A stretch of 29,032 nucleotides of DNA, from positions 1 through 29,032 of the forward strand of contig CBDUXP010000051.1 in NCBI GenBank assembly GCA_965371225.1. Reading direction: 5' to 3'. Below the pieces are notes generated by a model, which ran no database searches, was not told the origin of the DNA, and worked only from the letters and a program-made list of their open reading frames with translations. Position numbers and translations under genes: made by a program. Source of the DNA: CBDUXP01 sp965371225 [NCBI: uncultured bacterium]. Its GTDB lineage: Bacteria; Abyssobacteria; SURF-5; CBDUXP01. The stretch's first letter is position 1; the number at the start of each line of letters is the position of its first letter. This document shows positions 11,280 through 28,058 of this stretch, in pieces.

Positions 11280-12248
11280 ATGGCTGCAAAACTGGAAGTA
11301 TGGGAAGTATGGCGGTACGAATCAAGCGGAAAGCTAGTTGCTAAACGCCCTTTCTACCACCTTGGAAACGCCCCGGCGAACGCGGTCACGCTTCCACGCA
11401 GCATTGATCTGAATAGGCCTATTGTCATACCCCTCAATAGGGACATGACTCTTTCTCGAGAAGGCGCCCATCGCATTCGGGCAGCGACAAAATTGGAGGC
11501 AACGCCGTACCGAGTGGAGATTGAAGCGACGCAGTCCAGTTTTCGGATTATCAGACACTGGAATGTTCATCACTTGCCGCAGAAGACGTCGGATCCCACC
11601 GCGCCGTTAGAACAGCGAATTGACCTATCGCCAGCAGAGGGCCACACGAAGGAAGAGGACGAATACTTAGGCGCCAGAGGACCTCATTGGACCAGCTTCC
11701 TAACAGGATTAATTGGACTGATCTATGTATTTGAGGACCGTATGCTAGGCGGGGCACTTCTCGCATTAGCGATAGCAATCGCTGTGTTTACCAGACGAGG
11801 CCAGGATCAAGAACGATTGGCCGAAGTCTCTGCGGCCAAAGCACGTCTCCGCGAGCGTGCAGCCGAAAAGCTAAGTGCTGCCCTGGCGAGCTTAGAAGTC
11901 TGGGCTCAATTCGATGGGGTAAGTTTCGAGAATGCTGTTGCGGAGGTGTTTCACCGACAGGGTTACACAGTCGCTCATACGCCGCGCTCCAGCGATCAGG
12001 GTGTGGACCTATTCTTAGAACGTGACGGCAAGACTATTGCAGTTCAATGCAAATCTCACAAGAAGGCTGTCGGAGTGTCGGCGGTCCGAGAACTCATCGG
12101 ATCTATGGCATCATTTCCGCAAGTGGACGACGCCATCCTCGTGAGCCTATATGACTTTAGTCGTCCCGCAAGAGAGTTAGCTAAGCAACAGAACATATCA
12201 CTTTACTCAATCTCACGAGACTTTCTAGGAACGGAGGCGAGACTCTAG
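11280..12248 (+). CDS. Membrane-anchored Mrr-type restriction endonuclease-like protein
   Basis: 322 aa. Residues 1-130 are an unrecognised N-terminal region. Two hydrophobic segments lie at about 138-150 and 156-171 and are followed by a charged helical linker to about 205. The C-terminal domain is Mrr-catalytic: FENAVAEVF with Glu217, then GVDLFLERDGKTIAVQCKSH giving Asp243 and the QxK pair Gln256/Lys258 of the PD-(D/E)xK nuclease core. Mrr-like enzymes cleave modified foreign DNA. I chose the ATG at 11280 because GGAGG precedes it; an ATG at 11232 is possible. Base composition is AT-richer than flanking genes, suggesting transfer. Its stop shares CTAG with the end of a comM fragment. Confidence 0.8.
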   Translation: MAAKLEVWEVWRYESSGKLVAKRPFYHLGNAPANAVTLPRSIDLNRPIVIPLNRDMTLSREGAHRIRAATKLEATPYRVEIEATQSSFRIIRHWNVHHLPQKTSDPTAPLEQRIDLSPAEGHTKEEDEYLGARGPHWTSFLTGLIGLIYVFEDRMLGGALLALAIAIAVFTRRGQDQERLAEVSAAKARLRERAAEKLSAALASLEVWAQFDGVSFENAVAEVFHRQGYTVAHTPRSSDQGVDLFLERDGKTIAVQCKSHKKAVGVSAVRELIGSMASFPQVDDAILVSLYDFSRPARELAKQQNISLYSISRDFLGTEARL

Positions 12249-12325
12249 ATGTGCTCTTGGTCGATGGTGTCGGTGGCGGCGAGGTCGGCGATGGTACGGG
12301 CGACTCTTACCAGGCGGTGGTAGGC
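12245..12325 (-). pseudogene. comM: comM (yifB) C-terminal fragment A
   Basis: Minus-strand reading gives [19 protein letters not shown] then TIDQEHI and a TAG. This is the conserved C-terminal helical segment of the Mg-chelatase-like AAA+ ATPase ComM/YifB, which intact would continue with about 15 more residues ([11 protein letters not shown]). The fragment ends exactly at the stop codon of the Mrr-type gene. No N-terminal comM sequence precedes it. Compare fragments at 13479 and 27859. Confidence 0.7.
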
Positions 12326-12382
12326 CGGGGCGCCTGCCCCCGCACGTGTCCGGGCCTATCGTCGTTCAACACATGGCTCCGC

Positions 12383-13342
12383 TTACCCGTTGCCGGAGGG
12401 CTGGTCCGTCGTCGACTTCTCTGACGAGTCTTCGGTTCCGCCCGTCGAGCGGTACGCGTCTTTGTGCGCGTTCCACCAACGAAAGAAGGCCTCACGATTA
12501 TCCAAGAAGGGGCGCTCAATCTTGGCCTCTTGGTCGATCAGGACTAGGGCGCGCTGGACACCGCGGAGGCTGTCGTCCTTCTCCAGTATCCAGAACATGA
12601 AGGCCAGTCTCTCATACAGTGAAAAGCGGGCCTGATCCCAGACCGTTACCAGGAAGTCTTCTTTTGCGGCATAGGTGGTGGTGGGATAAAGCCTTCGAAA
12701 CCCCTCTAGAGTTGTCGTGTTCGGATCGATACCGGCGCGTTTCCATGCCACGTTAGGCAGGATTCTAATGTCTAAGAAGGGGTGCTTATCCGCTATGATC
12801 GTATTCGTTGCCGCGATCGCCATCACTTGAAACGGGCCTTCGGTGCGGGCTTCCATAAGATCTTCAAAGGCCCACCGATCGTCATTATTTGCGCGTAGCA
12901 CCCGTTCATGAAAAACTGTGAGTTCTTGCTGAACCTGCAGTTGGTCCTGCGCTTCTGTCATAGTGGCTTCAAGTGCTGCCGCTCGCGCTTCGGCAGCGTC
13001 CAGCAGCGTCTGTAAATCGGCAATCTTCTCGTGTGCATCACCAGCATCTCTGGCCGTGGACGCGATGAACGCGGCGTGTTGCCCCGCTGTAGCCTCCAAA
13101 GCCACCACGCGCTCAACACTCGCGTTCACCTGCCGCTCCTGTTCCGCAAACAGTTCGCCTGCCGGTGTTTTAACGCGCGTGATTCTGGGGAGCATGTACA
13201 GCACCGCCGCCGCGATGAACCCGAGCGCACCAAGCCCGAGCACCCGGACCATGCCCATTTGGGGCGTGTAAATCCCCAAGTAGCCGCAAACGACAAGAGT
13301 ATCGATGAGGACCAGTACCGCCAAAAGCTGGATGCCATTCAT
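12383..13342 (-). CDS. Membrane protein with coiled coil, unknown function
   Basis: 319 aa from the ATG at 13340-13342; a GTG at 13358-13360 is also possible and neither has a clear Shine-Dalgarno. Two transmembrane helices lie in the first 55 residues (IQLLAVLVLIDTLVVCGYLG and the segment around VLGLGALGFIAAAVLYML). Residues of about 65-150 are a coiled coil rich in Ala, Glu and Gln. The C-terminal domain has aromatic-rich stretches such as ERLAFMFWILEKDD and AFFRWWNAHKDAY and ends in a low-complexity tail. I do not recognise the family. It starts about 135 bases downstream of comM fragment B on the same strand, and shares the AT-richer composition of the Mrr-type gene. Confidence 0.75.
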   Translation of the reverse strand: MNGIQLLAVLVLIDTLVVCGYLGIYTPQMGMVRVLGLGALGFIAAAVLYMLPRITRVKTPAGELFAEQERQVNASVERVVALEATAGQHAAFIASTARDAGDAHEKIADLQTLLDAAEARAAALEATMTEAQDQLQVQQELTVFHERVLRANNDDRWAFEDLMEARTEGPFQVMAIAATNTIIADKHPFLDIRILPNVAWKRAGIDPNTTTLEGFRRLYPTTTYAAKEDFLVTVWDQARFSLYERLAFMFWILEKDDSLRGVQRALVLIDQEAKIERPFLDNREAFFRWWNAHKDAYRSTGGTEDSSEKSTTDQPSGNG

Positions 13343-13478
13343 AGCGGGCCAGATGGGCACTGTAGTGCGTACAGGCTAACGGAGGCAAGGCAGGGGGGAG
13401 GGTGTGTGAGATAAGGCCTCGCATTACCACGTTCCGGACAATTCATCTGCAGCATCACTAGCCTTGAGACCCGTTCAC

Positions 13479-13558
13479 CTAAACCCACAGATTCCGATCC
13501 GGTGACCGAGACTGAATCGCCTCGCCCATGCTTTCCTGGGTGATGGGGTCGCTGGCGG
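13479..13558 (-). pseudogene. comM: comM (yifB) C-terminal fragment B
   Basis: Minus-strand reading gives DPITQESMGEAIQSRSPDRN then LWV and a TAG. It aligns with the extreme C-terminus of ComM as seen in fragment C ([25 protein letters not shown]). Several substitutions (Tyr to Ser, Leu to Pro) show decay. It is preceded on the same strand by the tail of a luciferase-like oxidoreductase gene and followed by the membrane coiled-coil gene. Confidence 0.65.
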
Positions 13559-13568
13559 GCGGTCAGGA

Positions 13569-13640
13569 TCAGGCGCGCGGCGGGCCTTTGCGCAGGCGGA
13601 CGCGGGCGTCGTGGAGGGTGACGCCCCACGGCGGGCATTC
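13569..13640 (-). pseudogene. C-terminal fragment of a luciferase-like oxidoreductase gene
   Basis: The 24 codons read ECPPWGVTLHDARVRLRKGP, PRA and a stop. They match the end of the intact gene at 16774-17610 (SCMPWGVTLDDARARLRKGP, PRG, stop) at both protein and DNA level, including the bases after the stop. Only this tail remains; hairpin repeat R4 abuts its upstream side. Confidence 0.75.
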
Positions 13641-13718
13641 TTGTAACCGCCCACCCCGGTATCCCGCTCCGGTCCTCCGGACCGACCACCTCCCACCTCT
13701 GGGCTGCGCCCAACCGCC
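13638..13718 (-). repeat. Dispersed hairpin repeat, copy R4 (expanded)
   Basis: On the minus strand: GCGGTTGGGC-GCA-GCCCAGAG, an extra segment with its own palindrome GGTCCGGAGGACC, then GAGCGGGATACCGGGGTGGG and CGGTTACAAGAA. It ends exactly where the luciferase-like gene fragment begins. Confidence 0.7.
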
Positions 13719-13788
13719 GACAGCCGGCCCGTGTCGCGCCGGGCAGGGGCCGGGTTTGCGGCCCCGCCTCCCCCACTGAAGAAGGCGC

Positions 13789-13817
13789 TTGACATCTGAG
13801 ATACTTGTATATACAAT
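13789..13817 (+). promoter_or_regulatory. Sigma-70-type promoter of the marR-like gene
   Basis: TTGACA at 13789-13794, a 17-base spacer and TACAAT at 13812-13817: a perfect -35 and a one-mismatch -10 at ideal spacing. The ATG is at 13826, so the leader would be very short or absent. The -10 overlaps the palindrome at 13805-13816. Confidence 0.7.
13805..13816. promoter_or_regulatory. Palindromic operator, probable MarR-type site 1
   Basis: TTGTATATACAA is a perfect 12-bp palindrome placed across the -10 box of the promoter. MarR-family proteins commonly bind such sites and block their own promoters. An 11 of 12 match lies upstream of the next gene at 14302-14313. Confidence 0.65.
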
Positions 13818-13825
13818 TACATCAG

Positions 13826-14284
13826 ATGCGCGACGACACCCCCAGCGATCCTGCAGACGTGATCGCCCAGCACTGCCTGGCGACGCGCGTCCGTTTCCTG
13901 AATCGCGCCGTGTGTGGGATCTATGACAGCGCCCTGCGTCCGCTGGGGGTGAAAACGAGTCAGGCCAACATCCTGGTGTTCATCTCCCGCCGCAAATCGA
14001 CCACCCCGACGCGCCTCGCCGACTGGCTGCACATGGATGCGTCGACCGTCAGCCGCAATGTGGAACGCATGCGCGTCCGGGGCTGGATCGAGACCCGGCC
14101 CGAGGCAGACGGGCGCGCGCACACCCTCCGGCTGACGAGAAAAGGCAAGGCGCTGGTGACCCGCCTCTTCCCCGCGTGGCAGGGCGCACAGGAACAAGCA
14201 CATGCCCTCTTGGGTCCGGATGGTGCGCAGGCCGTCAAGGATCTCGCCACCACCGTGCGGCGGGGCGCGGGGGCGAGCGCATGA
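13826..14284 (+). CDS. MarR family transcriptional regulator
   Basis: 152 aa from the ATG at 13826. A TTG at 13805 would add seven residues but lies in the operator. The central winged helix-turn-helix is visible as TTPTRLADWLHMDASTVSRN (recognition helix) followed by VERMRVRGWIETRPEADGRA, with the wing at RAHTLRLTRKGKAL. N- and C-terminal helices would form the dimer interface. It is followed 48 bases later by the reductase gene on the same strand, and the same palindromic half-site occurs in both upstream regions, so it probably represses both itself and that gene in response to a small ligand. Confidence 0.88.
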   Translation: MRDDTPSDPADVIAQHCLATRVRFLNRAVCGIYDSALRPLGVKTSQANILVFISRRKSTTPTRLADWLHMDASTVSRNVERMRVRGWIETRPEADGRAHTLRLTRKGKALVTRLFPAWQGAQEQAHALLGPDGAQAVKDLATTVRRGAGASA

Positions 14285-14295
14285 TGCGTTTGCCC

Positions 14296-14313
14296 ATACA
14301 TATGTATATACAA
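14296..14313. promoter_or_regulatory. Probable MarR-type operator site 2
   Basis: ATACATATGTAT (14296-14307) is a perfect palindrome overlapping ATGTATATACAA (14302-14313), which differs by one base from site 1. It lies between the regulator stop and the AAGGAG of the reductase gene. Confidence 0.55.
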
Positions 14314-14332
14314 CTATCTAAGGAGCCGCCTC

Positions 14333-15673
14333 ATGCCCACCCTCGCTGAACATCCCACGGTTCGTGGATACCGGGAACGACACACGGACGCGCCCGACGC
14401 GCACCGGGGACGGCAACCACTCGACGCGGCGTGGCTGCGCACCCTCTGCCTAGAGGCTGGGGCGGATGACGTGGGCTTCGTGGATATCGACAGCCCGGAC
14501 CTGGGGGCGGAAGGGGCGAACATCCGGAAGGCGTTCCCCTATGCGCGCACGCTCATCAGCTTTGTGCGCCGCATGAACCGCGAGAATATCCGCCACCCGG
14601 CGCGCTCGCTGGCGAACCTGGAGTTCCACCACTCCGACGTGAATGAGGTGGCCCGCGATATCTGCCGCACCTTGGAGGGACACGACGTGCGCGCCGCGTA
14701 CAACGCGATGGGCTTTCCCATGGAGGCGGACCGCTGGCCGGAGCGGATGTGGGTCATCGCGCATAAGCCGGTCGCCATTGCGGCGGGGCTGGGCGTCATG
14801 GGGATTCACCGGAACGTGATCCATCCGACGTTCGGCAACTTCATCCTGCTCGGCACGGTGGTGCTCGACCGCGCCGTCACGGAACGGGCCGCCCCCCTGG
14901 ACTACAACCCCTGTCTCGAATGCAAACTCTGCATTGCTGCGTGTCCCGTCGGCGCCATCGGCTCCGACGGCCACTTCGACTTCGCGGCGTGTTACACGCA
15001 CAATTACCGCGAGTTCATGGGCGGGTTCGGCGACTGGGTGGAGAACATCGCGGAGAGCGGGAGCCGGGCCGAGTACCGCGCCCGCGTCTCGGACAGCGAG
15101 ACGGTGTCCATATGGCAGAGCCTGGCCTGGGGCTCCAACTACAAGGCGGCCTACTGCATGGCGGTCTGCCCCGCCGGGGCAGACGTGATCGGGCCGTTTC
15201 TCGAAAACCGAAAGCAATTTCTCACCGACGTGGTGACGCCGCTCCAGAAAAAGGAGGAGCCCGTGTACGTGATTCCGGACAGCGACGCGGAAGCGCACGT
15301 ACGGAAACGGTTTCCACACAAAACTATCCGACAGGTCGGGAGCGGCCTGCGCGCCAAGTCGGCGGCCGGGTTTTTCGGGGCCCTGCCCCTCGTCTTCAAC
15401 CGGCACAAGAGCGCGGGGCTGAACGCCACTTATCACTTCACGTTCACGGGTGCAGAAGAGTATGCCGGCACCGTCGTCATCCGGGACAAACACATGGACG
15501 TCCAGCAGGGGCACATCGGGAAAGCGGACCTCCACGTGACGGCCGATACGCACACCTGGCTCAAGTTCCTCGCTAAGGAACGCAACATCGCGTGGGCCAT
15601 CATCCGCCGCAAGATTCGGCTGAAGGGCTCCCCCAAGCTGCTGCTCGCCTTTGGCCGTTGCTTCCCGTCGTAG
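14333..15673 (+). CDS. 4Fe-4S reductase (reductive dehalogenase / QueG-like) fused to an SCP2-like domain
   Basis: 446 aa. Residues 40-180 resemble the domain before the clusters in epoxyqueuosine reductase and reductive dehalogenases. Cluster 1 ligands are Cys194, 197, 200 and 204 (CLECKLCIAACPVG). The second motif is only CMAVCP (Cys275, Cys279), so a second full 4Fe-4S set is partly degenerate or uses other cysteines such as Cys220. Residues from about 350 to the end look like a SCP2 sterol-carrier domain (ATYHFTFTGAEEYAGTV, ADLHVTADTHTWLKFL), which would bind a lipophilic substrate. No twin-arginine signal is seen, so it is cytoplasmic. AAGGAG sits 8 bases before the ATG. Control by the adjacent MarR protein is likely. 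Confidence 0.82.
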   Translation: MPTLAEHPTVRGYRERHTDAPDAHRGRQPLDAAWLRTLCLEAGADDVGFVDIDSPDLGAEGANIRKAFPYARTLISFVRRMNRENIRHPARSLANLEFHHSDVNEVARDICRTLEGHDVRAAYNAMGFPMEADRWPERMWVIAHKPVAIAAGLGVMGIHRNVIHPTFGNFILLGTVVLDRAVTERAAPLDYNPCLECKLCIAACPVGAIGSDGHFDFAACYTHNYREFMGGFGDWVENIAESGSRAEYRARVSDSETVSIWQSLAWGSNYKAAYCMAVCPAGADVIGPFLENRKQFLTDVVTPLQKKEEPVYVIPDSDAEAHVRKRFPHKTIRQVGSGLRAKSAAGFFGALPLVFNRHKSAGLNATYHFTFTGAEEYAGTVVIRDKHMDVQQGHIGKADLHVTADTHTWLKFLAKERNIAWAIIRRKIRLKGSPKLLLAFGRCFPS

Positions 15674-15806
15674 TCGCCTAGGCCGCGCAGCATGCAGGGC
15701 GGGGCGGGGAATGGTGCAGGCATTTTGCACGGGACGATGAAATCCCTAGTATGGAGGGCGCTGCGGGGCGTTCTGGCCCTGAGTGGGCTGGCCCGGAGGA
15801 GGGCGC

Positions 15807-16727: not shown

Positions 16728-16773
16728 GTCCGCTGCGACCGAGCGGGGATTTCTTTCGGGCGCGCGGTCGGGA

Positions 16774-17610
16774 TCAGCCCCGGGGTGGGCCTTTGCGGAG
16801 GCGGGCGCGGGCGTCGTCGAGGGTAACGCCCCACGGCATACAGGACTCGACCCACCAGGTCGCGCCGACCTCGGCATAGGCGTTCGGCATGGCCATGTCT
16901 TGACCATCGGTCGTCATTCCGCATTGGACGAACTCGAACAGGCCGTCGCCTTCCCGGTGCTCGTTCACGTACGCCACCAAGTCGCGGAATTCGTCCGGCG
17001 AAATCGTACCGCCCTCCAAGGGGTCCTTCGCCATGGGCACCACGCCGTCCCACCGCGCCGCCCGGCGGAAGGGTTTCTTGAACGGCCAGGTGCCCGCCAC
17101 CCAGATGGGAATGCGGGGGCGTTGCACGGGCGGACCGAACCCTTCCGTCGCAGCGGTGTAGTGGTCGCCCTTGTGCTCGACGGGCTCGCCGCTCCAGAGC
17201 GCATCGAGCAGGGTGAGTCCTTCGTCGAGCATGGCGCCGCGCACTTTCGGATCGCCCTCGTCGCCGAACGCGGTGTACTCCGGGATGCCGGGGTAGCCGG
17301 CCCCGGCGCCGAAGATCAACCGGCCACCCGACAGATGATCGAGCGTGGCGGTCTCCCGCGCGAGCTTTGCGATGCGGCGGCGCGGGACGGGCGTCACCAT
17401 CGTGCCGATGCGCAGGCGTTCCGTTTGCATGGCCATGGCCGCCAGCGCGACCCAGGGATCCGCGGTGGGTTCGCTGCGCCGGAAGATTTCGATGTGGTCC
17501 CACAGGAAGAACCCGTCCCATCCGGCCACTTCCGCGTCGCGCGCCAGGTCGGCGAGGGCGCGCGCGTCTCCCCCGATCCCGAAATTGGGAATGATGTATC
17601 CGTATTGCAT
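16774..17610 (-). CDS. LLM class flavin- or F420-dependent oxidoreductase
   Basis: 278 aa with a bacterial-luciferase-type TIM barrel. Characteristic blocks are MQYGYIIPNFGIGGDARALA, the GWDGFFLWDHI strand, RLRIGTMVTPVPRRR, LSGGRLIFGAGAGYPGIPEY with the family GAGxG, and a C-terminal PWGVTLDDARARL. I chose the ATG at 17608-17610; the longer open frame is degenerate repeat sequence. It is divergent from the PaaI-type gene. A deazaflavin-type oxidoreductase at 19145 suggests that F420 may be used in this organism, but FMN cannot be excluded. A copy of its 3' end lies at 13569-13640. Confidence 0.88.
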   Translation of the reverse strand: MQYGYIIPNFGIGGDARALADLARDAEVAGWDGFFLWDHIEIFRRSEPTADPWVALAAMAMQTERLRIGTMVTPVPRRRIAKLARETATLDHLSGGRLIFGAGAGYPGIPEYTAFGDEGDPKVRGAMLDEGLTLLDALWSGEPVEHKGDHYTAATEGFGPPVQRPRIPIWVAGTWPFKKPFRRAARWDGVVPMAKDPLEGGTISPDEFRDLVAYVNEHREGDGLFEFVQCGMTTDGQDMAMPNAYAEVGATWWVESCMPWGVTLDDARARLRKGPPRG

Positions 17611-17728
17611 CGGGACAGTGTATCCGCCCACCCACGGCCATTGCCTTGTGTAAACGGATTCACCGCTTGAGGCAGGCTGCTTGCCCGCACCGGTGGCCGG
17701 TGGATACCCTTTGATCCGGAGGAAGATC

Positions 17729-18178
17729 ATGGAGCGACGTTTGAGCTTTCAGCAACAATTCTTTCCGGACGGCGAGTGCTTCGGCTGCGGGCCGAAGAAC
17801 GCCGCAGGACTGTCAATCGAAAGCTTCCCGACTGGTGATGGTGAGATGGTGTGCGACTGGACCCCCCGGCCGGAACACACGAACGGTGGGGGTGCCGTGT
17901 GCGGCGGCGTGCTGGGTAGCATTCTGGATTGCCATGCAGCGGCGATGGGGGCTCACGCGCTTTCGGAACGCGACGGCATGTACGCGTTTGGAGTCACCAA
18001 GGAGTTCACGATCCAATTCCTCCGTCCCGCGCCCATGGAACCGATGCGCCTCGTTGCCAAGGTGACCGAACTCCGCAGTCGAAGCGCGGCCGTGGAGGCG
18101 ACGGCGGCCGTGAACGGCGAAGTCTGCGCCCGGTTCAGCGGCGTCTTCGTGGTCCCGCGCCAAGCCGCATCCGCCTAG
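17729..18178 (+). CDS. PaaI-type hotdog-fold thioesterase
   Basis: 149 aa from the ATG at 17729, with GGAGG 7 bases upstream. CFGCGPKNAAGL near the N-terminus and GGAVCGGVLGSILDCHAAAM in the middle match the PaaI / YbgC-like thioesterase family, where the Asp in the long helix (SILDCHA) is the usual catalytic acid. TKEFTIQFLRPAPMEP is the following beta strand. Such enzymes hydrolyse acyl-CoA esters, often aromatic ones; the substrate is not predictable. It is separated from the divergent oxidoreductase gene by about 120 bases that contain degenerate repeat traces. Confidence 0.85.
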   Translation: MERRLSFQQQFFPDGECFGCGPKNAAGLSIESFPTGDGEMVCDWTPRPEHTNGGGAVCGGVLGSILDCHAAAMGAHALSERDGMYAFGVTKEFTIQFLRPAPMEPMRLVAKVTELRSRSAAVEATAAVNGEVCARFSGVFVVPRQAASA

Positions 18179-18269
18179 CGCGACCGAATCGCCCACCCCC
18201 ACTGCCTGCCTGAGCGCGCGGGTATGGGCTGGTTGCCCGGGTCAGGCCGCCCGCGATAGGCTCGGCAGC

Positions 18270-19046: not shown

Positions 19047-19080
19047 CGGCGGCGGCATGATAGCCTGTGGCACCCGCAAG

Positions 19081-19138
19081 GCGGCCGGTTGCGCCGCAGG
19101 CGCAGAGGCAGGCTGTCCGGCCGGGCGACTACAAGGAG
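19081..19138 (+). repeat. Dispersed hairpin repeat, copy R5
   Basis: Stem TGCGCC-GCA-GGCGCA, then GAGGCAGGCTGTCCGGCCGGGCGACTACAAGGA. Its terminal TACAAGGAGA is the ribosome binding site of the gene that starts at 19145. Confidence 0.8.
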
Positions 19139-19144
19139 AGACTC

Positions 19145-19755: not shown

Positions 19756-19756
19756 T

Positions 19757-19817: not shown

Positions 19818-19863
19818 TTCGCCGAAAGGCTTGCCTGTAGAATGACCGGTAGGAGACCGCACC

Positions 19864-20331: not shown

Positions 20332-20391
20332 ATGGCAATCAGGGCCCTCCCCATTGCGCCCCCACGGGATGTGCGCCGGCTCGCGTGGCCC

Positions 20392-20832
20392 TTACGTTTC
20401 GAGTTCACACGGTGGAGCAACGGCTTCCGGAGTTCCCCGTCCCGTTTCAACAAGCAGCCGTAGGCTTTCCAAGAAGTAGGCCCAGCTCATCCCACAATCG
20501 CGGTAAATGTCGGTCGCCTCGGACCAGCCGGAGTGATCGAAGCGAACAATGGTCTTCGACTCACACCGTTCGAAGGCAAAGCGGATTTCCGTTTGCGCCC
20601 ATATACCCTCGTCACTGATGCAGCGCCAGACAATTTCTGAGTTGGATGTCATCGTCGTTACGTCGAAACGCGTGGAGCCCTCGGGGAAATGCAGCGTCAG
20701 GATATGCCCCGGCGCGTACTCTTCCGCGCTCGCTCGCGTAAACCATGCGGCAATGCCAGCGAGCGTGGCGACCCGGCGGTACACGACCTCCACGTCGCCC
20801 TCAACTCGAATAAGAAACGCGATGTCAAGCAT
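20392..20832 (-). CDS. SRPBCC / AHSA1-type START-fold protein
   Basis: 146 aa. The N-terminal IRVEGDVEVVYRRVATLAGI and AAWFT match the start of the AHSA1 (activator of Hsp90 ATPase-like) family, and the C-terminal helix begins MSWAYFLESLRLLVETGRG, also as in that family. Between them, FDHSGWSEATDIYRDCGMSW is the typical last strand and helix junction. Such proteins bind hydrophobic ligands in a helix-grip cavity; functions vary. GGAGGGATA lies before the ATG at 20830-20832. It stands alone, with repeats on its downstream side. Confidence 0.85.
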   Translation of the reverse strand: MLDIAFLIRVEGDVEVVYRRVATLAGIAAWFTRASAEEYAPGHILTLHFPEGSTRFDVTTMTSNSEIVWRCISDEGIWAQTEIRFAFERCESKTIVRFDHSGWSEATDIYRDCGMSWAYFLESLRLLVETGRGTPEAVAPPCELET

Positions 20833-20948
20833 AGGACATATCCCTCCAACGACTGTGCAGGGACCAGTATACGTCGACTAGTCCAGGGAGACGCCTTCCA
20901 GATTGCTCGCGGATTCCGGGGGTCGTGCGCGCAGGCGCGGGCGCTCGC

Positions 20949-21164
20949 TCAGGCGATGCGTGCGTGCGTCTTGAGAAACCCGAGTCCCTGCTCCGTGATG
21001 TGCACCATCCGCTCCCGCCGCTGCACGAAGCGCGCGTCCACCGCGTCTTCCCAGATCGGGAGGCGGGGGCAGGACGTCCGCCACGCCTCCATCACGTCCG
21101 TGTACCGTCTCGGCTCAGCCGCAATCCATTCCAGAAGGTCGAGCACCAGCGCTTCGTTTTCCAT
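20949..21164 (-). CDS. Small winged-helix-like protein
   Basis: 71 aa. The order is a helix (ENEALVLDLLEWIAAEPR), a second helix with YTDVMEAWRTSCPRL, IWEDAVDARFVQR, and then a strand pair ending VHITEQGLGFLKTHA, where TEQGLGFL resembles the wing of helix-turn-helix proteins. I know similar short proteins from other genomes as uncharacterised ORFs; DNA binding is inferred only from this layout. It shares a strand with the SRPBCC gene and the histidine kinase gene but the gaps of over 100 bases argue against tight coupling. Confidence 0.65.
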   Translation of the reverse strand: MENEALVLDLLEWIAAEPRRYTDVMEAWRTSCPRLPIWEDAVDARFVQRRERMVHITEQGLGFLKTHARIA

Positions 21165-21263
21165 CTGTTAGCCCGCGATCGCCAGGTAGAATTTCTCACC
21201 GGAACACAGGCAATTATCCTACCAGGCCCACACGTTTGACCGTGGGGCGGCAGAGTGCGAACG

Positions 21264-23750
21264 CTACGTGTCCAACGCCGTACGGAGGGCGGCGGTGAGC
21301 GTCTGGAGGCGGTAAGGCTTCTGCACGAAGCCGGCCAGGTCCGTGTCCGCGAACACGTCGGTCGCGTCCTGCTCGTTGTACCCGCTGCACAGGATCACCC
21401 GCACGTCCGGCTGGATGCGTCGCATCTCGCGGAAGGCGGCCGCCCCGCCCAGGTGCGGCATGGTCAGGTCCAGGAGCACCAACACGATCTCCTCCGCACG
21501 CGCGCGAAACACCTCCACCCCCGCCCGCCCATCATCGGCCGTCAGGACCGTGAACCCGTACCGGGTGAGGACGCGTTTGGCATGCTGCCGCACCTGCTCC
21601 TCATCGTCTACGACGAGGACGGTCCCGCTGCCATGCCACGTCTCACTCTCTACCGTCCCGCCCGGATCCCGCGTACCCGCCGCCGGCGCCGCCGCGGGGA
21701 GCAACATGGTGAACGTGGTGCCCCGCCCCGGTTCGGAGTCGACCGTGAGCGCGCCGTGATGCCCCCGCACGATTCCCTGCACCGCGGCGAGCCCTAAGCC
21801 GCGTCCCTGGAACTTGGTCGTGAAGAAGGGATCGAACATTCTCGCGACCGTCTCGGCGTCCATACCCGTCCCGGTATCCGCGACTTCGAGGTACACGACG
21901 TCGCCCGGCGCGAGGTCGTCGGTCAAATCGCGCTCGGCCAGGTACGCCGCATCCACCGCCACAACGCCCGTGGACACGGTCACGGTCCCGTTGCGTGTAC
22001 CGATCGCCTCGCCCGCGTTGATGATCAGGTTCATGATCACCTGCTTCATCTGCGCGGCATCCGCCTCGATCGCCGGCAGGTCGGGTGCAAACTGCGTCTC
22101 CAGCACGACCCCCTTGCTCAGCGTCGCCTCCAGCAAATGCGCAATCTCCCGCACGAGGCGCCCCAGGTCGAGCGCCTCGACGATGAAGGAGCCCTTGCCC
22201 GAATACGCAAGCATCTGCTTGGTGAGGTCGGCGGCGTGGAGTGCGGACTGGCGGATATCCTCGACCTGCTCGCGCACAGTCGCCTCGGGCGGCAGATCCA
22301 GCAACACGAGGTCTGCGCCACCGAGGATGCCCGTAAGCAGGTTGTTGAAGTCGTGCGCGATGCCGCCGGCCAGCACCCCCAGGCTTTCGAGCTTCTGCGC
22401 GTGCTGCACCCGCCGCTCCAAGAACAGGCGCTCCTCCTCCGCGCGCTTGCGCTCCGTGATGTCGTGGACCATACCGATGAACAAGGGCCTTCCCTGCAGG
22501 CGGACTTCACTCACGGCCAGTTCTATCGGAAACGTTGTTCCGTCCTTGCGCAGACCGGCGAATTCGCGCGACGTGCCGACGAGGTGCGCCTCTCCCGTCT
22601 CAAAATACCGCGCGAGATAGCCATCGCATGCATCGGCATGCGGCGCGGGCATAAGCCTGGACACGTTCTGGCCCAGCATCTCTTCGGTCGAATACCCAAA
22701 CATCGCCTCCGCAGCGGGGTTGCAGGACTCCACGATGCCCCGGTCGTTGATCGCAATGATGGCATCGAGTGTCCCATCCATGATCGTCCGGAGGCGTTGC
22801 TCCTTTTCGTCGAGATCTGCCCGTGCTGCATTCAGGCGGACCACCGCGAGTTCCTCTTGCCGGTACGTGTGCACGTAGTCCAGGGCAAGGCCGGTCAGGG
22901 GGACGAGGTACGCCACGATCTTGAGAAAGTGCGCGACATTGAACGCGTTGTCGAAGAGGGCCGTGGATCCAAAAGCCATGTAGGCCTGGGTGGCCACGTC
23001 CGGAATCACACTCACCAGCAGCGCATGCGAGAACAGGCTGGGGTGGGCCCGATGCAGGGGCCGATACACGAAGGCGCCGGCAAGCATGAACAGCACCAAC
23101 GGGCCAACATCATACGGCCGGGTGATCAGCGAGGTCGGGTACATGGTCTGCGGAAGCTGGCGGCTCGTGGCGCACACGTGGATGATGAGATAGGCCGTCA
23201 CCCCGAACGCCAGACTCACGCCGGTGACGAGACGGGCATCAGCGCGCGTGCGCATCGCCTTCGTGCTCATCACCAGGCCCACCCCGGCGACGGTGATGAG
23301 GACATTGAACAGCCGGCAGAGCGCCCACGTAAACGGGATCAGGTTCCGGTTGTCGGCCATCGCATCAATCAGGCGATTCGCCGCCAACGTATGAAACGCG
23401 TCCATGCACCCGGCGTAGAACAGGGCCACGCCAATAATCGGTGTCACCGCATCGCGCTTGATGCCAAAGTGGATGAGGGCGAGCACGACCGTAAACAACG
23501 CGGCCGAGAACGCACTCCATTCCAGAAGGGTGTGCGTGAACGCGCCCCGGAGGCCGTGAAACACGGCGTTGACCTGTTCACCGGCAGGCAGGTCCTGCGC
23601 GCCGGTCAGGTCAAGCGGGGGGGCCTTGGAACCGAAGTCGACGCCAGCGAGATTGAGCAACAACGGGGCGACGCAGATAGCCACCACGACCCAGACCACA
23701 AAGTCCGGAAGGCGCAACTGCTCCCGTGGAGGCTGTTGGGCCGTACTCAT
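21264..23750 (-). CDS. Hybrid sensor histidine kinase / response regulator with MASE-type membrane sensor
   Basis: 828 aa from the ATG at 23748-23750, which has GGGAG 6 bases upstream. Domains: residues 17-295 are a MASE3-like membrane sensor with about eight helices, including the segment GVALFYAGCMDAFHTLAANR; about 315-430 is a PAS domain ending FIGMVHDITERKRAEEE; the HisKA box is GGIAHDFNNLLTGILG with His466; the HATPase has an N box near NLIINAGEAIG, then VADTGTGM and GRGLGLAAVQGIVRGHHG; the receiver holds VLVVDDEEQ, phosphoacceptor Asp761 (LLDLTMP) and Lys811. All key residues are present. No partner regulator is adjacent, so the output may be through the receiver or a distant protein. 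Confidence 0.92.
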   Translation of the reverse strand: MSTAQQPPREQLRLPDFVVWVVVAICVAPLLLNLAGVDFGSKAPPLDLTGAQDLPAGEQVNAVFHGLRGAFTHTLLEWSAFSAALFTVVLALIHFGIKRDAVTPIIGVALFYAGCMDAFHTLAANRLIDAMADNRNLIPFTWALCRLFNVLITVAGVGLVMSTKAMRTRADARLVTGVSLAFGVTAYLIIHVCATSRQLPQTMYPTSLITRPYDVGPLVLFMLAGAFVYRPLHRAHPSLFSHALLVSVIPDVATQAYMAFGSTALFDNAFNVAHFLKIVAYLVPLTGLALDYVHTYRQEELAVVRLNAARADLDEKEQRLRTIMDGTLDAIIAINDRGIVESCNPAAEAMFGYSTEEMLGQNVSRLMPAPHADACDGYLARYFETGEAHLVGTSREFAGLRKDGTTFPIELAVSEVRLQGRPLFIGMVHDITERKRAEEERLFLERRVQHAQKLESLGVLAGGIAHDFNNLLTGILGGADLVLLDLPPEATVREQVEDIRQSALHAADLTKQMLAYSGKGSFIVEALDLGRLVREIAHLLEATLSKGVVLETQFAPDLPAIEADAAQMKQVIMNLIINAGEAIGTRNGTVTVSTGVVAVDAAYLAERDLTDDLAPGDVVYLEVADTGTGMDAETVARMFDPFFTTKFQGRGLGLAAVQGIVRGHHGALTVDSEPGRGTTFTMLLPAAAPAAGTRDPGGTVESETWHGSGTVLVVDDEEQVRQHAKRVLTRYGFTVLTADDGRAGVEVFRARAEEIVLVLLDLTMPHLGGAAAFREMRRIQPDVRVILCSGYNEQDATDVFADTDLAGFVQKPYRLQTLTAALRTALDT

Positions 23751-23829
23751 ATGCGCTCCCTGGTCTCTGCGCGCACCTGGTCCTCCCGCGTGCTCGTTTC
23801 GCAAGTACGCAGATACTGCTAATATCGCT

Positions 23830-23835
23830 ATTATA
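23830..23835 (-). promoter_or_regulatory. Possible -10 element for the histidine kinase gene
   Basis: TATAAT on the minus strand in an AT-rich pocket about 80 bases before the kinase start. No good -35 is visible at 17 bases, so this is tentative. The stretch 23751-23978 contains nothing else that I can identify. Confidence 0.25.
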
Positions 23836-23978
23836 CATATTTCTGATAGCCCTGCACAGGCAGGTGGACCCAGGGGATTACCCGGCCAGTGACACACGAC
23901 ACACTCACTGAAGCGCCCGCCGCAGATGCCGCCCCGGGACAATGCTCGTCTACGCCCTCGACCGCGAGTCGCGCGTGC

Positions 23979-24016
23979 GTAGGGGCGCGATACATCGCGC
24001 CCACGTACGGCACGGG
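23979..24016. repeat. Palindromic repeat GGGCGCGAT type, copy 2
   Basis: GTAGG then GGGCGCGAT-AC-ATCGCGCCC and ACGTACGGCACGG. It differs from copy 1 in the loop and one flanking base. It opens a cluster of at least five repeats. Confidence 0.7.
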
Positions 24017-24047
24017 GCAATGGTCTTTCTGTGTAGGGGCGGGTCTA

Positions 24048-24103
24048 GGGGAAAGCGGATGCGCGAAGCGCAGAGCGGGATGCCGGGCTCGGCGGCGACA
24101 ACA
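24048..24103 (+). repeat. Dispersed hairpin repeat, copy R6
   Basis: GGAAAGCGGATGCGC-GAA-GCGCAGAG, then CGGGATGCCGGGCTCGGCGG and CGACAACAA. It is closest to R3 outside the stem and to R1 within it. Confidence 0.75.
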
Positions 24104-24158
24104 ACCCGCCCGTCCCATTCCCGGCGGCCTTACACTCTGCGTTCTTGGTGGCTTGAAC

Positions 24159-24217
24159 GGCGGCCGGTTGCGCCGCAGGCGCAGAGGCAGGATGCCGGGT
24201 GGGGCGGCTATAAGGAC
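24159..24217 (+). repeat. Dispersed hairpin repeat, copy R7
   Basis: GGCGGCCGGTTGCGCC-GCA-GGCGCAGAG, then GCAGGATGCCGGGTGGGG and CGGCTATAAGGA. Nearly identical to R5 on the 5' side and to R1 on the 3' side. Confidence 0.8.
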
Positions 24218-24220
24218 GTC

Positions 24221-24252
24221 AATCTGCGTTCATCCGCGTGCATCCGCGGTTT
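24221..24252. repeat. 'atccgcgttcatccgcg' repeat, copy 2
   Basis: AATCTGCGTTCATCCGCGTG and CATCCGCGGTTTC, related to 19721-19753. It abuts the transposase remnant. Confidence 0.6.
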
Positions 24253-24253
24253 C

Positions 24254-24313
24254 ACCCCGCGCCGTCACGTGGTACACCGCCCCCGCAAACTCCAGCCGCA
24301 ACGGCCGCGCCAT
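24254..24313 (-). pseudogene. N-terminal remnant of a REP-associated tyrosine transposase (RAYT)
   Basis: The first 20 codons on the minus strand from the ATG at 24311-24313 read MARPLRLEFAGAVYHVTARG, the conserved N-terminus of RAYT / Y1_Tnp (REP-associated) transposases, whose HUH and Tyr motifs would come later. The similarity stops where the 24221-24252 repeat begins and a TGA follows at 24230-24232. No other part of the gene is visible. RAYTs mobilise short hairpin repeats, and two copies of the hairpin repeat family lie within 270 bases. Confidence 0.7.
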
Positions 24314-24405
24314 GGACCGCAGCCGGCCCGCTCAGATACGGCAATGCAAGACTTGACGCCATGTTGCGAGGTGTAAGTCCGACCCCTAGCGTTTGCTCCT
24401 CATTT

Positions 24406-24969
24406 TCAATTCACAAGAGCAGCCCATGGGCCGAGTTCCGACCACAGCTCACTCGGTCGAAGGATCTGCAACGCTTCTATCTTGACCTTGTCCCTATGCC
24501 TCCATATGGAGCGGCGATCCACTGTGAGGAAGATGTCACACTCCACGACGACAGCCTCCGCTATTAGCTTCCGGTCCGGCTCGTCGGGGAAACAGGTGAG
24601 AGTAGAAGCGACGGCAGTGACTCTTGCTTGGAAGTTCTCGCTTGAGAGAATGTTGCGATTTTGCGGATCACCCCAGTCCCACCAATGGTGGAATATTTCC
24701 AGAGTGTAGTTCTCCAAGAAGTGTCTATTAGCCCGCCCAATTTCTTCAATTGTCGTAGGAGTGATGTACAGGGGCATACAAACACGTCGGAACACTTGAA
24801 CAATGTCGCGCAACGCCTCGATGTCTTCTTGATCTTCAATCGGCCGGCGTAGATACTCGCTCTGCGCTTCACCGCAAAGACAGTTGTCAAACACGTACTC
24901 GCCGAAATCAGACAAGCGGTTGACAACACAGGTGTCCAAGAACACTTTTCGGGTAAGCGTGCAAGTCAC
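24406..24969 (-). CDS. PIN-domain-like protein
   Basis: 187 aa. FLDTCVVNRLSD near the N-terminus places the first PIN Asp at residue 12. DRKLIAEAVVVECDIFLTVD near residue 135-160 supplies further acidic residues in the order seen in PIN nucleases (D...E...D). TTIEEIGR in the middle may give another Glu. PIN proteins are Mg-dependent RNases and often toxins. The start is a GTG whose GTGA overlaps the stop of the upstream gene by four bases, so the pair is translationally coupled. Base composition is clearly AT-richer than the flanks, which suggests acquisition. The fold is inferred from motifs only. Confidence 0.75.
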   Translation of the reverse strand: MTCTLTRKVFLDTCVVNRLSDFGEYVFDNCLCGEAQSEYLRRPIEDQEDIEALRDIVQVFRRVCMPLYITPTTIEEIGRANRHFLENYTLEIFHHWWDWGDPQNRNILSSENFQARVTAVASTLTCFPDEPDRKLIAEAVVVECDIFLTVDRRSIWRHRDKVKIEALQILRPSELWSELGPWAALVN

Positions 24970-25511
24970 CGCATTCTCTTGACTGCGTCCCGTATGTAGC
25001 GGGCAACCTGATCATCGAGGCCGCAATCGAGCGCCAACTTGTAGAACTCTTCCGCCGCGTCACGGGACACTAGATGATGTAGGCGCACCTGATGTTTCGC
25101 GTAAACAGCAAGTGTCTCGTAATCCCCAGACGTTACCGGACCACAAGCCGCAACCTTCCGATCGAACGCTTCGACAATGGCCTCCTTTAGATCGGCGCCG
25201 AAGATAAAGTACCGCAGGTACTTTACGAAGTGCGGATGCCTTAGAATCTCATCTCCACTGCAGCCGTTCTTTTCAAATATCTCCTTTCGCGAGGATTTGG
25301 TACGACCGATGTTGAGTTCGGGATGCGTGAAGTACAGAATGCGCACCTCCGGAATAGCATTTCGCTGCAATAGAGATGTGGTCAGTTCGCGCGCTGCCTC
25401 TCCGCTTGCAAGCGCCGCGTGATAATCGTGCGGCGTATGAGCCGGGTAGAAGTTGATCAGGGCAAACAACTCGCCTTCAGCTTCGGTAAGTTCAACAGCA
25501 AGGGCAGGCAT
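24966..25511 (-). CDS. Unknown protein, coupled partner of the PIN-domain protein
   Basis: 181 aa with no family that I recognise. GGGAGGTGA lies 4-5 bases before the ATG, the strongest ribosome binding site in the window. The N-terminal half includes a RILYFTHPELNIGR stretch and a positively charged TKSSRKEIFEKNG loop; the rest looks helical, ending ARYIRDAVKRMR. There is no helix-turn-helix, ribbon-helix-helix or other familiar antitoxin fold. Being first in a two-gene unit with the PIN protein makes an antitoxin or a specificity subunit plausible, but this is context only. Composition is AT-rich like its partner. Confidence 0.7.
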   Translation of the reverse strand: MPALAVELTEAEGELFALINFYPAHTPHDYHAALASGEAARELTTSLLQRNAIPEVRILYFTHPELNIGRTKSSRKEIFEKNGCSGDEILRHPHFVKYLRYFIFGADLKEAIVEAFDRKVAACGPVTSGDYETLAVYAKHQVRLHHLVSRDAAEEFYKLALDCGLDDQVARYIRDAVKRMR

Positions 25512-25612
25512 CTTTCACCTCCCTTTTCTTACCTATGGCCATACATCAGGATAGTCCGCGCAGCGCCCACTAAGAGTCCGTGACGGCCGGACATGTAGCC
25601 CGGCGATCTGCT

Positions 25613-25861
25613 TCAGTGTTCGCGGTCCTTTGGCGGGTTCGGATCATTACCGGGCACGATAGTGTCTTTGCTTCTGAATTTTCCATCGCGTGCTTGGGTG
25701 GTTAACTCCCCACCACCTTGATTCTGCAACATGTGCCTTGCGGTATCGTTAGCTTCCTTCTGCGTCTCGTGTACGCTAGATGCTCGGCTCGCATCGTTTC
25801 TCTTATTAGCCCATTTACCGTTAGGCTGCCGGTAGACCGTTCTATCTCTGCCTTTGCTCAT
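25613..25861 (-). CDS. DUF2188 family small protein
   Basis: 82 aa. The pattern VYRQPNGKWANKRNDASRAS, HETQKEANDTARHMLQNQGG and the segment RDGKFRSKDTI matches DUF2188, small proteins with a beta hairpin and one helix that are common in genomic islands and phage-like DNA. Their function is unknown. The ATG at 25859-25861 has only a weak GGAAAA signal. It is transcribed in the same direction as the PIN pair but separated by about 100 bases. Confidence 0.8.
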   Translation of the reverse strand: MSKGRDRTVYRQPNGKWANKRNDASRASSVHETQKEANDTARHMLQNQGGGELTTQARDGKFRSKDTIVPGNDPNPPKDREH

Positions 25862-25902
25862 GACCAGTTTTCCGATCTGTAGGAATTACATCATGTTGGA
25901 AT

Positions 25903-26254
25903 CCACGTATCATCGCTTCTCCGTACTTAAAGAAACGTGGAGGCGAGCACGGGCCCTGCGTGCGTCCGCGAGAAGATTGTCCCCCATCCGGGGGTCAGCC
26001 GCAGAACGCCCCTGCCCACCCGTGCACTTTGAGAGTATCCCTGGATCGAAATCGGTCCGGGACCACAGGTGTAAGCACACACCTGCGGCGGGGTCCGCCT
26101 TCGTTAGCTCTCGCTAACCGACGAATAAGCCGCTTCCCCTGTATCTCCACAACACAACCCCTTCAGGGCAGAGTCTCAGCCGGTGCTTCAGCTGCGCATG
26201 GTGGGGGCAACCAAAAGGTTTTTCATGATTAACCTCCACGAGGTTGAGGGTTGC
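25903..26254 (+). ncRNA. Candidate structured RNA, unknown class
   Basis: The gap between the DUF2188 gene and the cyclase-like gene holds no convincing ORF but a dense series of stems: 25903-25908/25935-25940; 25947-25951/25959-25963; CCCCC-ATCC-GGGGG (25981-25994); a 10-bp stem at 26038-26062 with one bulge, one U-G pair and an AAAU loop; CAGGTGT/ACACCTG (26066-26085); GGCGG/CCGCC (26087-26099); GTTAGC-TCTC-GCTAAC (26103-26118); and AACCTC-CAC-GAGGTT (26231-26245) enclosed by GCAACC/GGTTGC (26207-26212/26249-26254). The U-G pair forms only if the plus strand is transcribed. It does not match tmRNA, RNase P, SRP or 6S that I can recognise. The bases from 26255 to 26388 hold nothing I can identify. 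Confidence 0.45.
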
Positions 26255-26388
26255 TTGTATTCACAGTGGCCTATTTGTATCAGACACGCGAACAAAAGTC
26301 AAAAGAACGCTGCTTGGCGAAGAGGAGGCCGGGCGCCTGCTGCACCAGTCGCCAACCTATAGCCAGAACTTTCGGTACGACATGCACG

Positions 26389-27846
26389 CTACCCGGAATA
26401 CAGAACCTTGAGCTCTGTAAACCAGACGAAGCAATAAGCCAACAAGGCTAGCCCAGTAATGAGCGCAAGGTACGCCACCCATGTCCCAGCCCCGCGCAGT
26501 CGACGAGCTCTCGACACTCTATCGAGTTCTTCTTGGTACCATCTCAGTAGCTCCCTGGTTGTCTTAGATGAGGGCTCTTTCAATGCCGCCTCGGTAGGCT
26601 TGGGCATTGTCGTTAGGCGGAACACCGTATGTTGCCCGATGCTCGCCAACAGAAACAATAGTGCTGCGAGCCCTAGCACGCCTGCTATCGTCACGCCCAC
26701 CAATAATCCTTCGACTTCTGCAAATCTATCCGCCTTCAAGGTCTCCATGATGCTAGTTGTACCCTGCCAGACATACCACACCGCAGATAGATAGGCGGTC
26801 ACGAGAATAATCCCCGGCCCGGAAAACAAATCCAGCGCACTTATGCGCCTGTATTCGAGGTCAGTTACATGCCTCAACGTAGACAAGAATATCTGAAGGG
26901 ATGAGTCTGCGTCCGCTGAACTACCTTGTTCCGTTAGGTGTAACGTGTTCCTACCCTCTTCCAACTGTGATCCCTGTTTATCGCCATGTTCTTCGTTCTG
27001 GCGTTCTGACTCGCTTGGCTCCTCAACAGTTGAGTCCGAATACCCATCTCCACCGTCCGCGCTACGCGCTGGCAAGTTCTTGCCTTCTGGGGGAGAGGTC
27101 GCAAGTGATTCTAGACGAGCATTAACGAAATCAAGCGTGTTTTCCCACTTTCTCTTCGCATCGACAGGTAGGGATGCATATGGGCCAAACAAGGGCTCGA
27201 AAGCCTGATAGAACTGGGGCATCGTAATTGGTGGTGACGCCTTCCAATTGTTGGCGAAAATAACTGGCCAATCAATTACAGCTTGATTCAACGACTGCCC
27301 GTTCTTCAGGGGCACATCGTGCCGTATGATCTTATTCCCCAAGGGCAAATGCCCGGCCAACTCGCCCACTTGTTCATCGACCACGATCCCAAGCCATTGA
27401 GCCGTTTCCGCGAGTTCATACGCCCGCACATGGGCGCTTCCGGCAAATAAGTTCTCGTCCAAGTTGAAGCGGAAGTCGCCGAGTGCGACGCCCCCTCGAA
27501 TGGGAACACAACTGTTAAATGCTTTTCCGAATAGCTCGCTAGCAAGCACAAGAGTGGCCCACAAGTCGACTTCCTCATCGCCGTAGGAAAACATGATAAC
27601 CGTGTCCGAGAAGATGAATGTGCGTACTCGGTCAGAGATGAGTTTTCCCGTGCTTTGAATCTGCATCACAATTGCAGATGCCTCTTTTCGACACGCATTG
27701 AGATCGCAAAGGGCACCCCACGCCTCCATCTCGTCTCGTACGATGGCATTCTTCATGCCTAACAAATCGAAATGCACAACATAACGTCGGGAATTGTGAT
27801 TCTCGATGAGTGGTACAGCCTTTAGGGTATGTTCTTGTTCTGGCAT
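26389..27846 (-). CDS. Class III nucleotidyl-cyclase-like protein with C-terminal transmembrane helices
   Basis: 485 aa from the ATG at 27844-27846, with GGAGG upstream. The N-terminal 230 residues resemble the adenylate/guanylate cyclase fold found in accessory islands: YVVHFDLLGMKNAI with Asp27, FIFSDTVIMFSYGD with Asp81 (the two metal-binding Asp), then PIRGGVALGDFRF and AYELAETAQWLG. Residues of about 250-310 are an acidic low-complexity linker. Three hydrophobic segments follow: IILVTAYLSAVWYVW, GVTIAGVLGLAALLFLLASI and the one around YLALITGLALLAYCFVWF. Pycsar anti-phage systems pair a cyclase with a membrane effector, so a single-chain version is a possibility. It starts 13 bases after the comM fragment C stop. 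Confidence 0.75.
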   Translation of the reverse strand: MPEQEHTLKAVPLIENHNSRRYVVHFDLLGMKNAIVRDEMEAWGALCDLNACRKEASAIVMQIQSTGKLISDRVRTFIFSDTVIMFSYGDEEVDLWATLVLASELFGKAFNSCVPIRGGVALGDFRFNLDENLFAGSAHVRAYELAETAQWLGIVVDEQVGELAGHLPLGNKIIRHDVPLKNGQSLNQAVIDWPVIFANNWKASPPITMPQFYQAFEPLFGPYASLPVDAKRKWENTLDFVNARLESLATSPPEGKNLPARSADGGDGYSDSTVEEPSESERQNEEHGDKQGSQLEEGRNTLHLTEQGSSADADSSLQIFLSTLRHVTDLEYRRISALDLFSGPGIILVTAYLSAVWYVWQGTTSIMETLKADRFAEVEGLLVGVTIAGVLGLAALLFLLASIGQHTVFRLTTMPKPTEAALKEPSSKTTRELLRWYQEELDRVSRARRLRGAGTWVAYLALITGLALLAYCFVWFTELKVLYSG

Positions 27847-27858
27847 CAATCGCCTCCA

Positions 27859-28058
27859 CTACAACCACAAATTCCTGTCCAATGACCGATACTGGATGGC
27901 TTCGGCGATGTGGGTTTGGTCGATGGTGTCGGCGGGGGCGAGGTCGGCGATGGTGCGGGCGGTTCTTCTAGGCGCCAGGCCCGACAGCCTGCCTCTGCGC
28001 ATACGGCGCAACCGGCGTCCCTGAGCAGGCGGTCGTAGTCGCGGGCGCTGGTCCGCAT
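27859..28058 (-). pseudogene. comM: comM (yifB) C-terminal fragment C, split by a repeat
   Basis: From 28058 the minus strand reads [13 protein letters not shown], then 56 bases that are hairpin repeat R8, then, in a shifted frame, [34 protein letters not shown] and TAG. Together these are the last 48 residues of the AAA+ helicase-like ComM/YifB, involved in natural transformation in some bacteria. The repeat length is not a multiple of three, so the frame is broken. The start overlaps the stop of the alpha/beta hydrolase gene (TGATG). No upstream comM sequence is present. Confidence 0.75.
27964..28019 (-). repeat. Dispersed hairpin repeat, copy R8
   Basis: On the minus strand: GACGCCGGTTGCGC-CGTAT-GCGCAGAG, then GCAGGCTGTCGGGCCTGGCG and CCTAGAAGA. 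It interrupts comM fragment C, so both ends are defined by the coding sequence it splits: about 56 bases. Confidence 0.75.

What the first reader, a model, noticed from the sequence alone, without database searches (positions are those of the whole stretch)
12245..28058. Three comM C-terminal fragments, each next to an accessory module
Minus-strand tails of comM are seen at 12245-12325 (ends TIDQEHI), 13479-13558 (ITQESMGEAIQ to LWV) and 27859-28058 ([12 protein letters not shown] to LWL). Fragment A abuts the Mrr-type nuclease stop, fragment B precedes the membrane coiled-coil gene, and fragment C lies 13 bases from the cyclase-like gene. comM is a known integration target for genomic islands in other bacteria. 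Repeated tails suggest that modules here carry or rebuild the comM 3' end on integration, much as islands do at tRNA genes, and have stacked up away from an intact comM.
Basis: partly seen in the sequence, partly recalled or inferred. Interest (0 to 1): 0.75.

Follow-up and report, generated by a model that had tools for sequence, protein, structure and literature searches.

The report
comM gene tails marking foreign inserts
Three leftover 3' ends of the DNA-uptake helicase gene comM each border a stretch of foreign-looking accessory genes, and similar comM tails stand behind comM genes in unrelated bacteria, so they look like scars of insertions at comM, but how the inserts got in is not shown.

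Summary
Three comM 3' fragments lie on the minus strand (A 12248-12340; B 13479-13553; C 27859-28049, with a dispersed repeat lodged inside). The 3' end of each borders a low-GC block (0.52-0.57 against about 0.64-0.68 in most neighbouring genes): the Mrr nuclease gene, a coiled-coil gene, and a four-gene block ending in the 'cyclase-like' gene. Elsewhere the geometry exists. In G736 an intact comM is followed by four comM tails on the same strand; G037, G103, G114 and others show one or two. In all, 13 of 13 extra comM 3' copies within 40 kb of a resident comM lie downstream on the same strand. Against a tRNA-like attachment site: left edges are not significantly clustered, no recombinase was found in the window or beside the stray copies examined, cargo elsewhere is (by eye) mostly not defence, the excess of C- over N-terminal copies is not significant, and an LLM oxidoreductase gene has its 3' end duplicated here too. 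Verdict: probable scars of recombination at comM 3' ends; mechanism open.

The parts
12248..12340 (-). comM 3' fragment A (about 31 codons, cut 15 codons before the comM end)
13479..13553 (-). comM 3' fragment B (last 24 codons and stop)
27859..28049 (-). comM 3' fragment C (about 45 codons and stop, interrupted by a dispersed repeat)
27965..28023 (-). copy of a dispersed 55-60 bp repeat inside fragment C (related copies at 19077-19137 and 24159-24217)
   Evidence: families D9, I1, I2
11226..12248 (+). module 3, low GC (0.52): gene with Mrr_cat nuclease domain, converging on fragment A; start uncertain (ORF 10839-12248)
12383..13360 (-). module 2: 325-aa gene (GC 0.57) between fragments B and A, no family found above cut-off
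24406..27849 (-). module 1: low-GC (0.52-0.56) four-gene block behind fragment C: 486-aa gene 26389-27849, DUF2188 gene 25613-25861 (also PADLOC PDC-S16), 181-aa gene 24966-25511, 187-aa gene 24406-24969
13554..13632 (-). duplicate of the 3' end of the LLM oxidoreductase gene (87% over 79 bp), directly upstream of fragment B
16774..17730 (-). LLM (Bac_luciferase) gene whose 3' end is duplicated at 13554-13632

Best explanation
The three fragments are scars of recombination at comM 3' ends. Foreign low-GC modules became joined to the 3' end of a comM gene, directly behind the stop codon in B and C, and the comM tail stayed with the module or was displaced to its far side; the stretch B - coiled-coil gene - A - Mrr looks like part of a stacked array of the kind seen in genome G736 (comM - insert - tail - insert - tail ...). 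Shown: the tails, the GC steps at their 3' ends, the same geometry behind comM elsewhere. Inferred: that the window's modules arrived by such events, and that the tail served as homologous or attachment sequence. Not known: the enzyme.
For: Tails verified. GC is lower behind the 3' end of each tail; the mean step of the three is reached with p 3e-4 to 2e-3 in four window settings, 0.016 and 0.045 in two with an 80-bp right side; B alone is weak (p 0.02 to 0.42) and the test was designed after GC was seen. Parallels: G736, intact comM followed by four tails on the same strand (left edges -83, -89, -83, -35; right edges 0 or +1 from the stop codon), a fifth on another contig; G037, G103, G114, G123, G158, G008, G477 and one of three G438 copies: 13 of 13 comM 3' copies within 40 kb of a resident comM lie downstream on the same strand. 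Right edges lie within 1 nt of the stop codon's end in 7 of 12 tabulated copies, five of these in G736. G037 has a Phd/PIN pair between comM and tail; in G131 a tail lies 0.7 kb before a type I restriction system.
Against: No intact comM in view and no genome for the window. No match of 11 recombinase queries in the window better than E 0.003 at 22% identity, none at E <= 1e-4 in 12 stretches around stray copies, none in the G736 stretches. Left edges not significantly clustered (p 0.13; one per genome 0.46). Upstream flanks of the three tails differ (abhydrolase gene, LLM tail, coiled-coil gene). Fragment A is cut inside the tail, not at the stop. An LLM gene tail is duplicated in the same window. 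The excess of C-terminal over N-terminal copies (15 against 7 of 247 genomes with more than one) is not significant (p 0.13). Copies in G438, G444 and G461 have no evident islands, by eye. Some G736 tails share sequence beyond comM, so part of that family may be a dispersed repeat.
Confidence: 0.45

Rival explanations
1. Homology-facilitated illegitimate recombination: DNA from relatives whose comM (or LLM gene) is followed by accessory genes recombined through the gene's 3' end on one side and joined at random on the other, leaving gene tails of variable length beside the new genes. No dedicated attachment site or enzyme exists.
For: Left edges are variable (-35 to -289), no recombinase was found, most copies are 75-97% identical to the resident comM, as expected from related donors, and the 3' end of a second gene (LLM) is duplicated in the same window.
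Against: Right edges stop within 1 nt of the end of the comM stop codon in 7 of 12 copies, though five are from one genome; repeated stacking at one gene in G736 and GC steps at all three tails of the window ask for some preference for comM.
Confidence: 0.3
2. Debris: partial comM duplications (or LLM and comM pseudogenes) shrank to short tails by deletion in repeat-rich intergenic DNA, and the accessory genes came in later and independently.
For: Copies without evident islands in G461 and G438; G444 has ten matches with variable edges; the excess of C-terminal over N-terminal copies is not significant; the window is rich in dispersed repeats, one of which sits in tail C.
Against: All three tails of the window border low-GC blocks at their 3' ends; 13 of 13 copies near a resident comM lie downstream on the same strand.
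Confidence: 0.25

Closest known systems
Dehalococcoides ssrA islands (PMC3146451; passages seen)
   Same: Tandem modules behind one target gene, separated by direct repeats of the target's 3' end; low-GC cargo.
   Different: There the target is the tmRNA gene, the repeat is 20 bp, one insertion point is inferred and a putative serine recombinase (DsiB) is carried by many islands. Here the target is a protein gene, edges vary and no recombinase was found.
Tn6022 (AbaR kind) and Tsy elements in comM (PMC10293859, 'Modularity and diversity of target selectors in Tn7 transposons'; passages seen)
   Same: comM is the target.
   Different: They insert inside comM, guided by TnsF to the Walker B motif; here only 3' tails are present and no tns match was found (TnsF itself was not searched for). 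G103 carries TnsA/TnsB/TniB/TniQ genes between comM halves and looks like the known kind.
comM interrupted by defence-bearing elements in Acinetobacter (PMC11472951; passages seen)
   Same: Accessory and defence genes at comM.
   Different: Interruption of one resident comM; the passages seen describe no repeated tails.

Membership tests
Tandem islands at a gene's 3' end (ssrA/tRNA type) | Direct repeats of the target's 3' end at module edges | tested here: met
   Tails A, B, C at GC steps; the step at B is weak on its own
Tandem islands at a gene's 3' end (ssrA/tRNA type) | Intact target gene at the head of the array | not testable with these tools
   No genome held; present in G736, G037, G114
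Tandem islands at a gene's 3' end (ssrA/tRNA type) | Fixed crossover point (common left edge of repeats) | tested here: not met
   Left edges -35 to -289; clustering p 0.13, one per genome 0.46; in G736 alone 4 of 5 lie within 6 nt
Tandem islands at a gene's 3' end (ssrA/tRNA type) | Site-specific recombinase in at least some modules | tested here: not met
   None in window or 12 stretches or G736, with 11 query proteins only
Tn6022/AbaR Tn7-like elements | tns genes and insertion at the comM Walker B motif | tested here: not met
   Best tns match in window E 0.003 at 22%; only the last 24-45 codons of comM are present
Tsy elements | YRec, small HTH and TnsF between comM halves | not tested
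   No TnsF query was run; one ORF taken by eye for a tyrosine recombinase gave no window match
Large-serine-recombinase elements in comM | Serine recombinase abutting a comM fragment | tested here: not met
   Best window match E 0.03

The most novel reading that the evidence does not exclude
The comM 3' end is an attachment sequence for small accessory cassettes without their own recombinase, moved by an enzyme supplied in trans: each cassette carries a comM tail of roughly 85-130 bp, restores comM when it enters, stacks behind it, and can be placed elsewhere with its tail. A protein-gene counterpart of tRNA/ssrA arrays, in at least the phyla of G037, G736 and the window's source.
Probability: 0.2. 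Interest if true: 0.75.

Novelty: new variant of a known kind. Interest (0 to 1): 0.5.

Why it matters
comM encodes the helicase that helps bacteria recombine foreign DNA in transformation, and mobile elements are known to break it (PMC10293859, PMC11472951). Arrays that leave comM whole and stack cargo behind it would be a gentler use of the same target, and comM tails would be a simple search handle for inserted accessory genes in genomes of uncultured bacteria.

Tried and rejected
Count of comM tails in the source genome: not possible. Tail pattern in genome contigs and viral contigs: 0 hits; a dispersed-repeat pattern in viral contigs: 0, another in 40 genomes: 0 of 40. So the source clade was not found. 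Homologues of the modules: the 486-aa and 325-aa genes have no plasmid match, the 486-aa gene no viral contig by exact peptide patterns; the Mrr gene matches 56 plasmid records, over about a third of its length in the ten listed.

Idea that comM's 3' flank is a general defence hotspot: 78 loci rows read by eye (several are the same gene, some are comM fragments; no family search was run on them); only G037 shows a toxin-antitoxin pair. Not supported as a general rule.

Controls. GAPDH C-terminal search: inconclusive, because of paralogues and a cut match list; some short frames occur there too. N-terminal comM search: 7 of 247 genomes with more than one match against 15 of 247 for the C-terminus; p 0.13, and 9 clear strays against at most 5 unexamined N-terminal cases gives p 0.42. 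Confidence in the best explanation was lowered from 0.5 to 0.45 for this, and the debris rival raised from 0.2 to 0.25. Left-edge clustering: not significant. Repeats of 9 bp or more between the module ends compared: none. Reading B and A as halves of one split tail: set aside, because they overlap by about 30 bp at about 70% identity (counted by eye).

Not followed up: G366, G428, G430, G459, G526 (near contig ends), G816 (contig end), G144, G160, G230, G742. G446 and G494 matches did not look like comM by eye. Left out of the 13 of 13 count: fragment-to-fragment pairs in G444 and G214 (same strand within a pair) and two distant G438 copies on the other strand. Left out of the 12-copy edge table: copies of G158, G008, G438, G444, G461, G477, G214, G264.

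Full report
1. Observation. Fragments A, B and C are comM 3' ends on the minus strand. A and C are 85.5% identical over 69 columns of DNA, B and C 75% over 52, ending at both stop codons. The same tail matches in 34 of 40 unrelated genomes at E <= 1. Fragment C carries a copy of a dispersed repeat between [10 protein letters not shown] and ARTIADL.

2. Surroundings. GC is 0.52 in the Mrr gene, 0.57 in the coiled-coil gene and 0.52-0.56 in the block 24406-27849, against 0.64-0.68 in most other genes; one further low-GC gene (20392-20832, 0.58) has no comM tail. The mean GC step at the 3' ends of the three tails is reached by 16-24 of 3401 circular shifts for four window settings and by 55 and 136 of 3401 for two with an 80-bp right side; for independent draws p runs from 3e-4 to 0.045. 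Singly, A has p 0.009-0.024, C 0.022-0.21, B 0.020-0.42. The Mrr gene matches Pfam Mrr_cat (E 3e-25) and the DUF2188 gene PADLOC PDC-S16. The 486-aa, 325-aa, 187-aa and 181-aa genes match no family above cut-off. Directly upstream of B lies a 79-bp, 87% copy of the end of the LLM gene at 16774-17730; the three genes between the two LLM ends have normal GC.

3. Other genomes. With a 65-aa comM C-terminal profile (A1), genomes with at least one match and with more than one: phylum of G037, 218 and 15 of 247 (E <= 0.01); phylum of G022, 127 and 3 of 149; phylum of G006, 132 and 8 of 151; phylum of G011, 123 and 3 of 135 (the last three at E <= 0.001). Of the 15 I count nine with stray 3' copies (G037, G103, G114, G123, G131, G158, G214, G238, G264); G079 and G082 have two full-length genes, G249 looks like a contig break, and G144, G160, G230 are unclear. 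In the same 247 genomes an N-terminal profile gave more than one match in 7, two of them full duplicates and five not examined; the difference is not significant.

4. Geometry. Copies within 40 kb of a resident comM on the same contig: G037 1, G103 2, G114 1, G123 1, G158 1, G008 1, G438 1 and G477 1, G736 4. All 13 are downstream on the same strand. In G123 the resident comM runs off the contig edge and in G103 it is itself split further upstream. In G736 the blocks shared with comM are 37-91 bp and end at the last base of the stop codon or one base beyond; copies 1 and 3 share a further 47 bp upstream, copies 2, 3 and 5 at least 20 bp downstream, and an 80-90 bp repeat lies near copies 2, 3, 4 and 5. 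Over 12 tabulated copies in seven genomes the right edge is within 1 nt of the stop codon's end in 7 (five in G736), the left edge is scattered.

5. Cargo. G037: Phd/PIN pair. G131: type I restriction genes 0.7 kb behind the tail. G736: DUF5995, DUF2939, sulfatase, a helicase and genes without family. G114: efflux-type genes; G103 and G123: mixed genes, all three read by eye only.

6. Mechanism. Gene-restoring integration would explain the stop-codon edge and the stacking; illegitimate recombination with a homologous anchor would explain the variable left edges, the lack of recombinases and the LLM tail. I give the common core (scars of recombination at comM 3' ends) 0.45 and do not claim an enzyme.

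7. Side finding. In other genomes comM is split by elements whose large serine recombinase gene lies against a comM fragment: G264 and G242 at the CPCG codons, G232 and G242 near residue 225-250, G078 near residue 300-311; a recombinase-like fragment, seen by eye, lies 0.7 kb from a comM 5' part in G123. A double-XRE HTH gene lies head-to-head with comM 3' fragments that start near CPCG in G158, G008, G264 and G214 (the four used for the profile). Of nine matches in 352 genomes searched (118, 119, 115), six lie next to a comM fragment: G123 twice (one already seen), G070, G067, G609, and G584, where it follows the comM 5' part; not so in G075 (contig edge), G675 and G724. My paper searches on comM with integrase or serine recombinase terms showed no description of this in their listings; one of them matched the word too loosely, lists were cut, and only open-licence papers are held.

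8. Known background, seen as passages: ssrA arrays with a 20-bp repeat and a putative serine recombinase (PMC3146451); Tn6022 and Tsy in comM (PMC10293859); comM broken by defence-bearing elements in A. baumannii (PMC11472951).

Noticed in passing
L206:4870-5792 and L212:13209-15753 (G264); L219 (G242); L214 and L215 (G078); L213 (G232): Large serine recombinase genes lie against split comM genes at different places in comM; G242 has two such recombinases in one comM.
   Followed up: partly
L167:4869-5276, L104:400-969, L201:2688-3143, L204:6583-6942, L173:6334-6690, L166:18599-18894, L208:1525-1827: A double-XRE HTH gene sits against comM fragments at the CPCG codons in several phyla.
   Followed up: partly
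L217:1-3753 and L165:17759-18418 (G103): TnsA, TnsB, TniB and TniQ genes between comM halves: a Tn6022-like insertion.
   Followed up: partly
window 1-55, 10322-10376, 10977-11031, 19080-19137, 24050-24104, 24159-24216, 27965-28023: Dispersed GC-rich 55-60 bp repeat families, one copy lodged in comM fragment C.
   Followed up: partly
window 13554-13632 and 16759-16837: The 3' end of an LLM oxidoreductase gene, with 15 bases past its stop, is duplicated, with three genes between the copies.
   Followed up: partly
window 10478-10683: Three copies of a 59-bp repeat close together upstream of the Mrr gene.
   Followed up: no
L176-L183 (G444): Ten comM C-terminal matches in one genome, several copies starting at the CPCG codons with shared upstream sequence.
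   Followed up: partly
L207:832-1209 (G264): A further comM 3' copy on another contig of the genome whose comM is split by an insert of about 80 kb.
   Followed up: no
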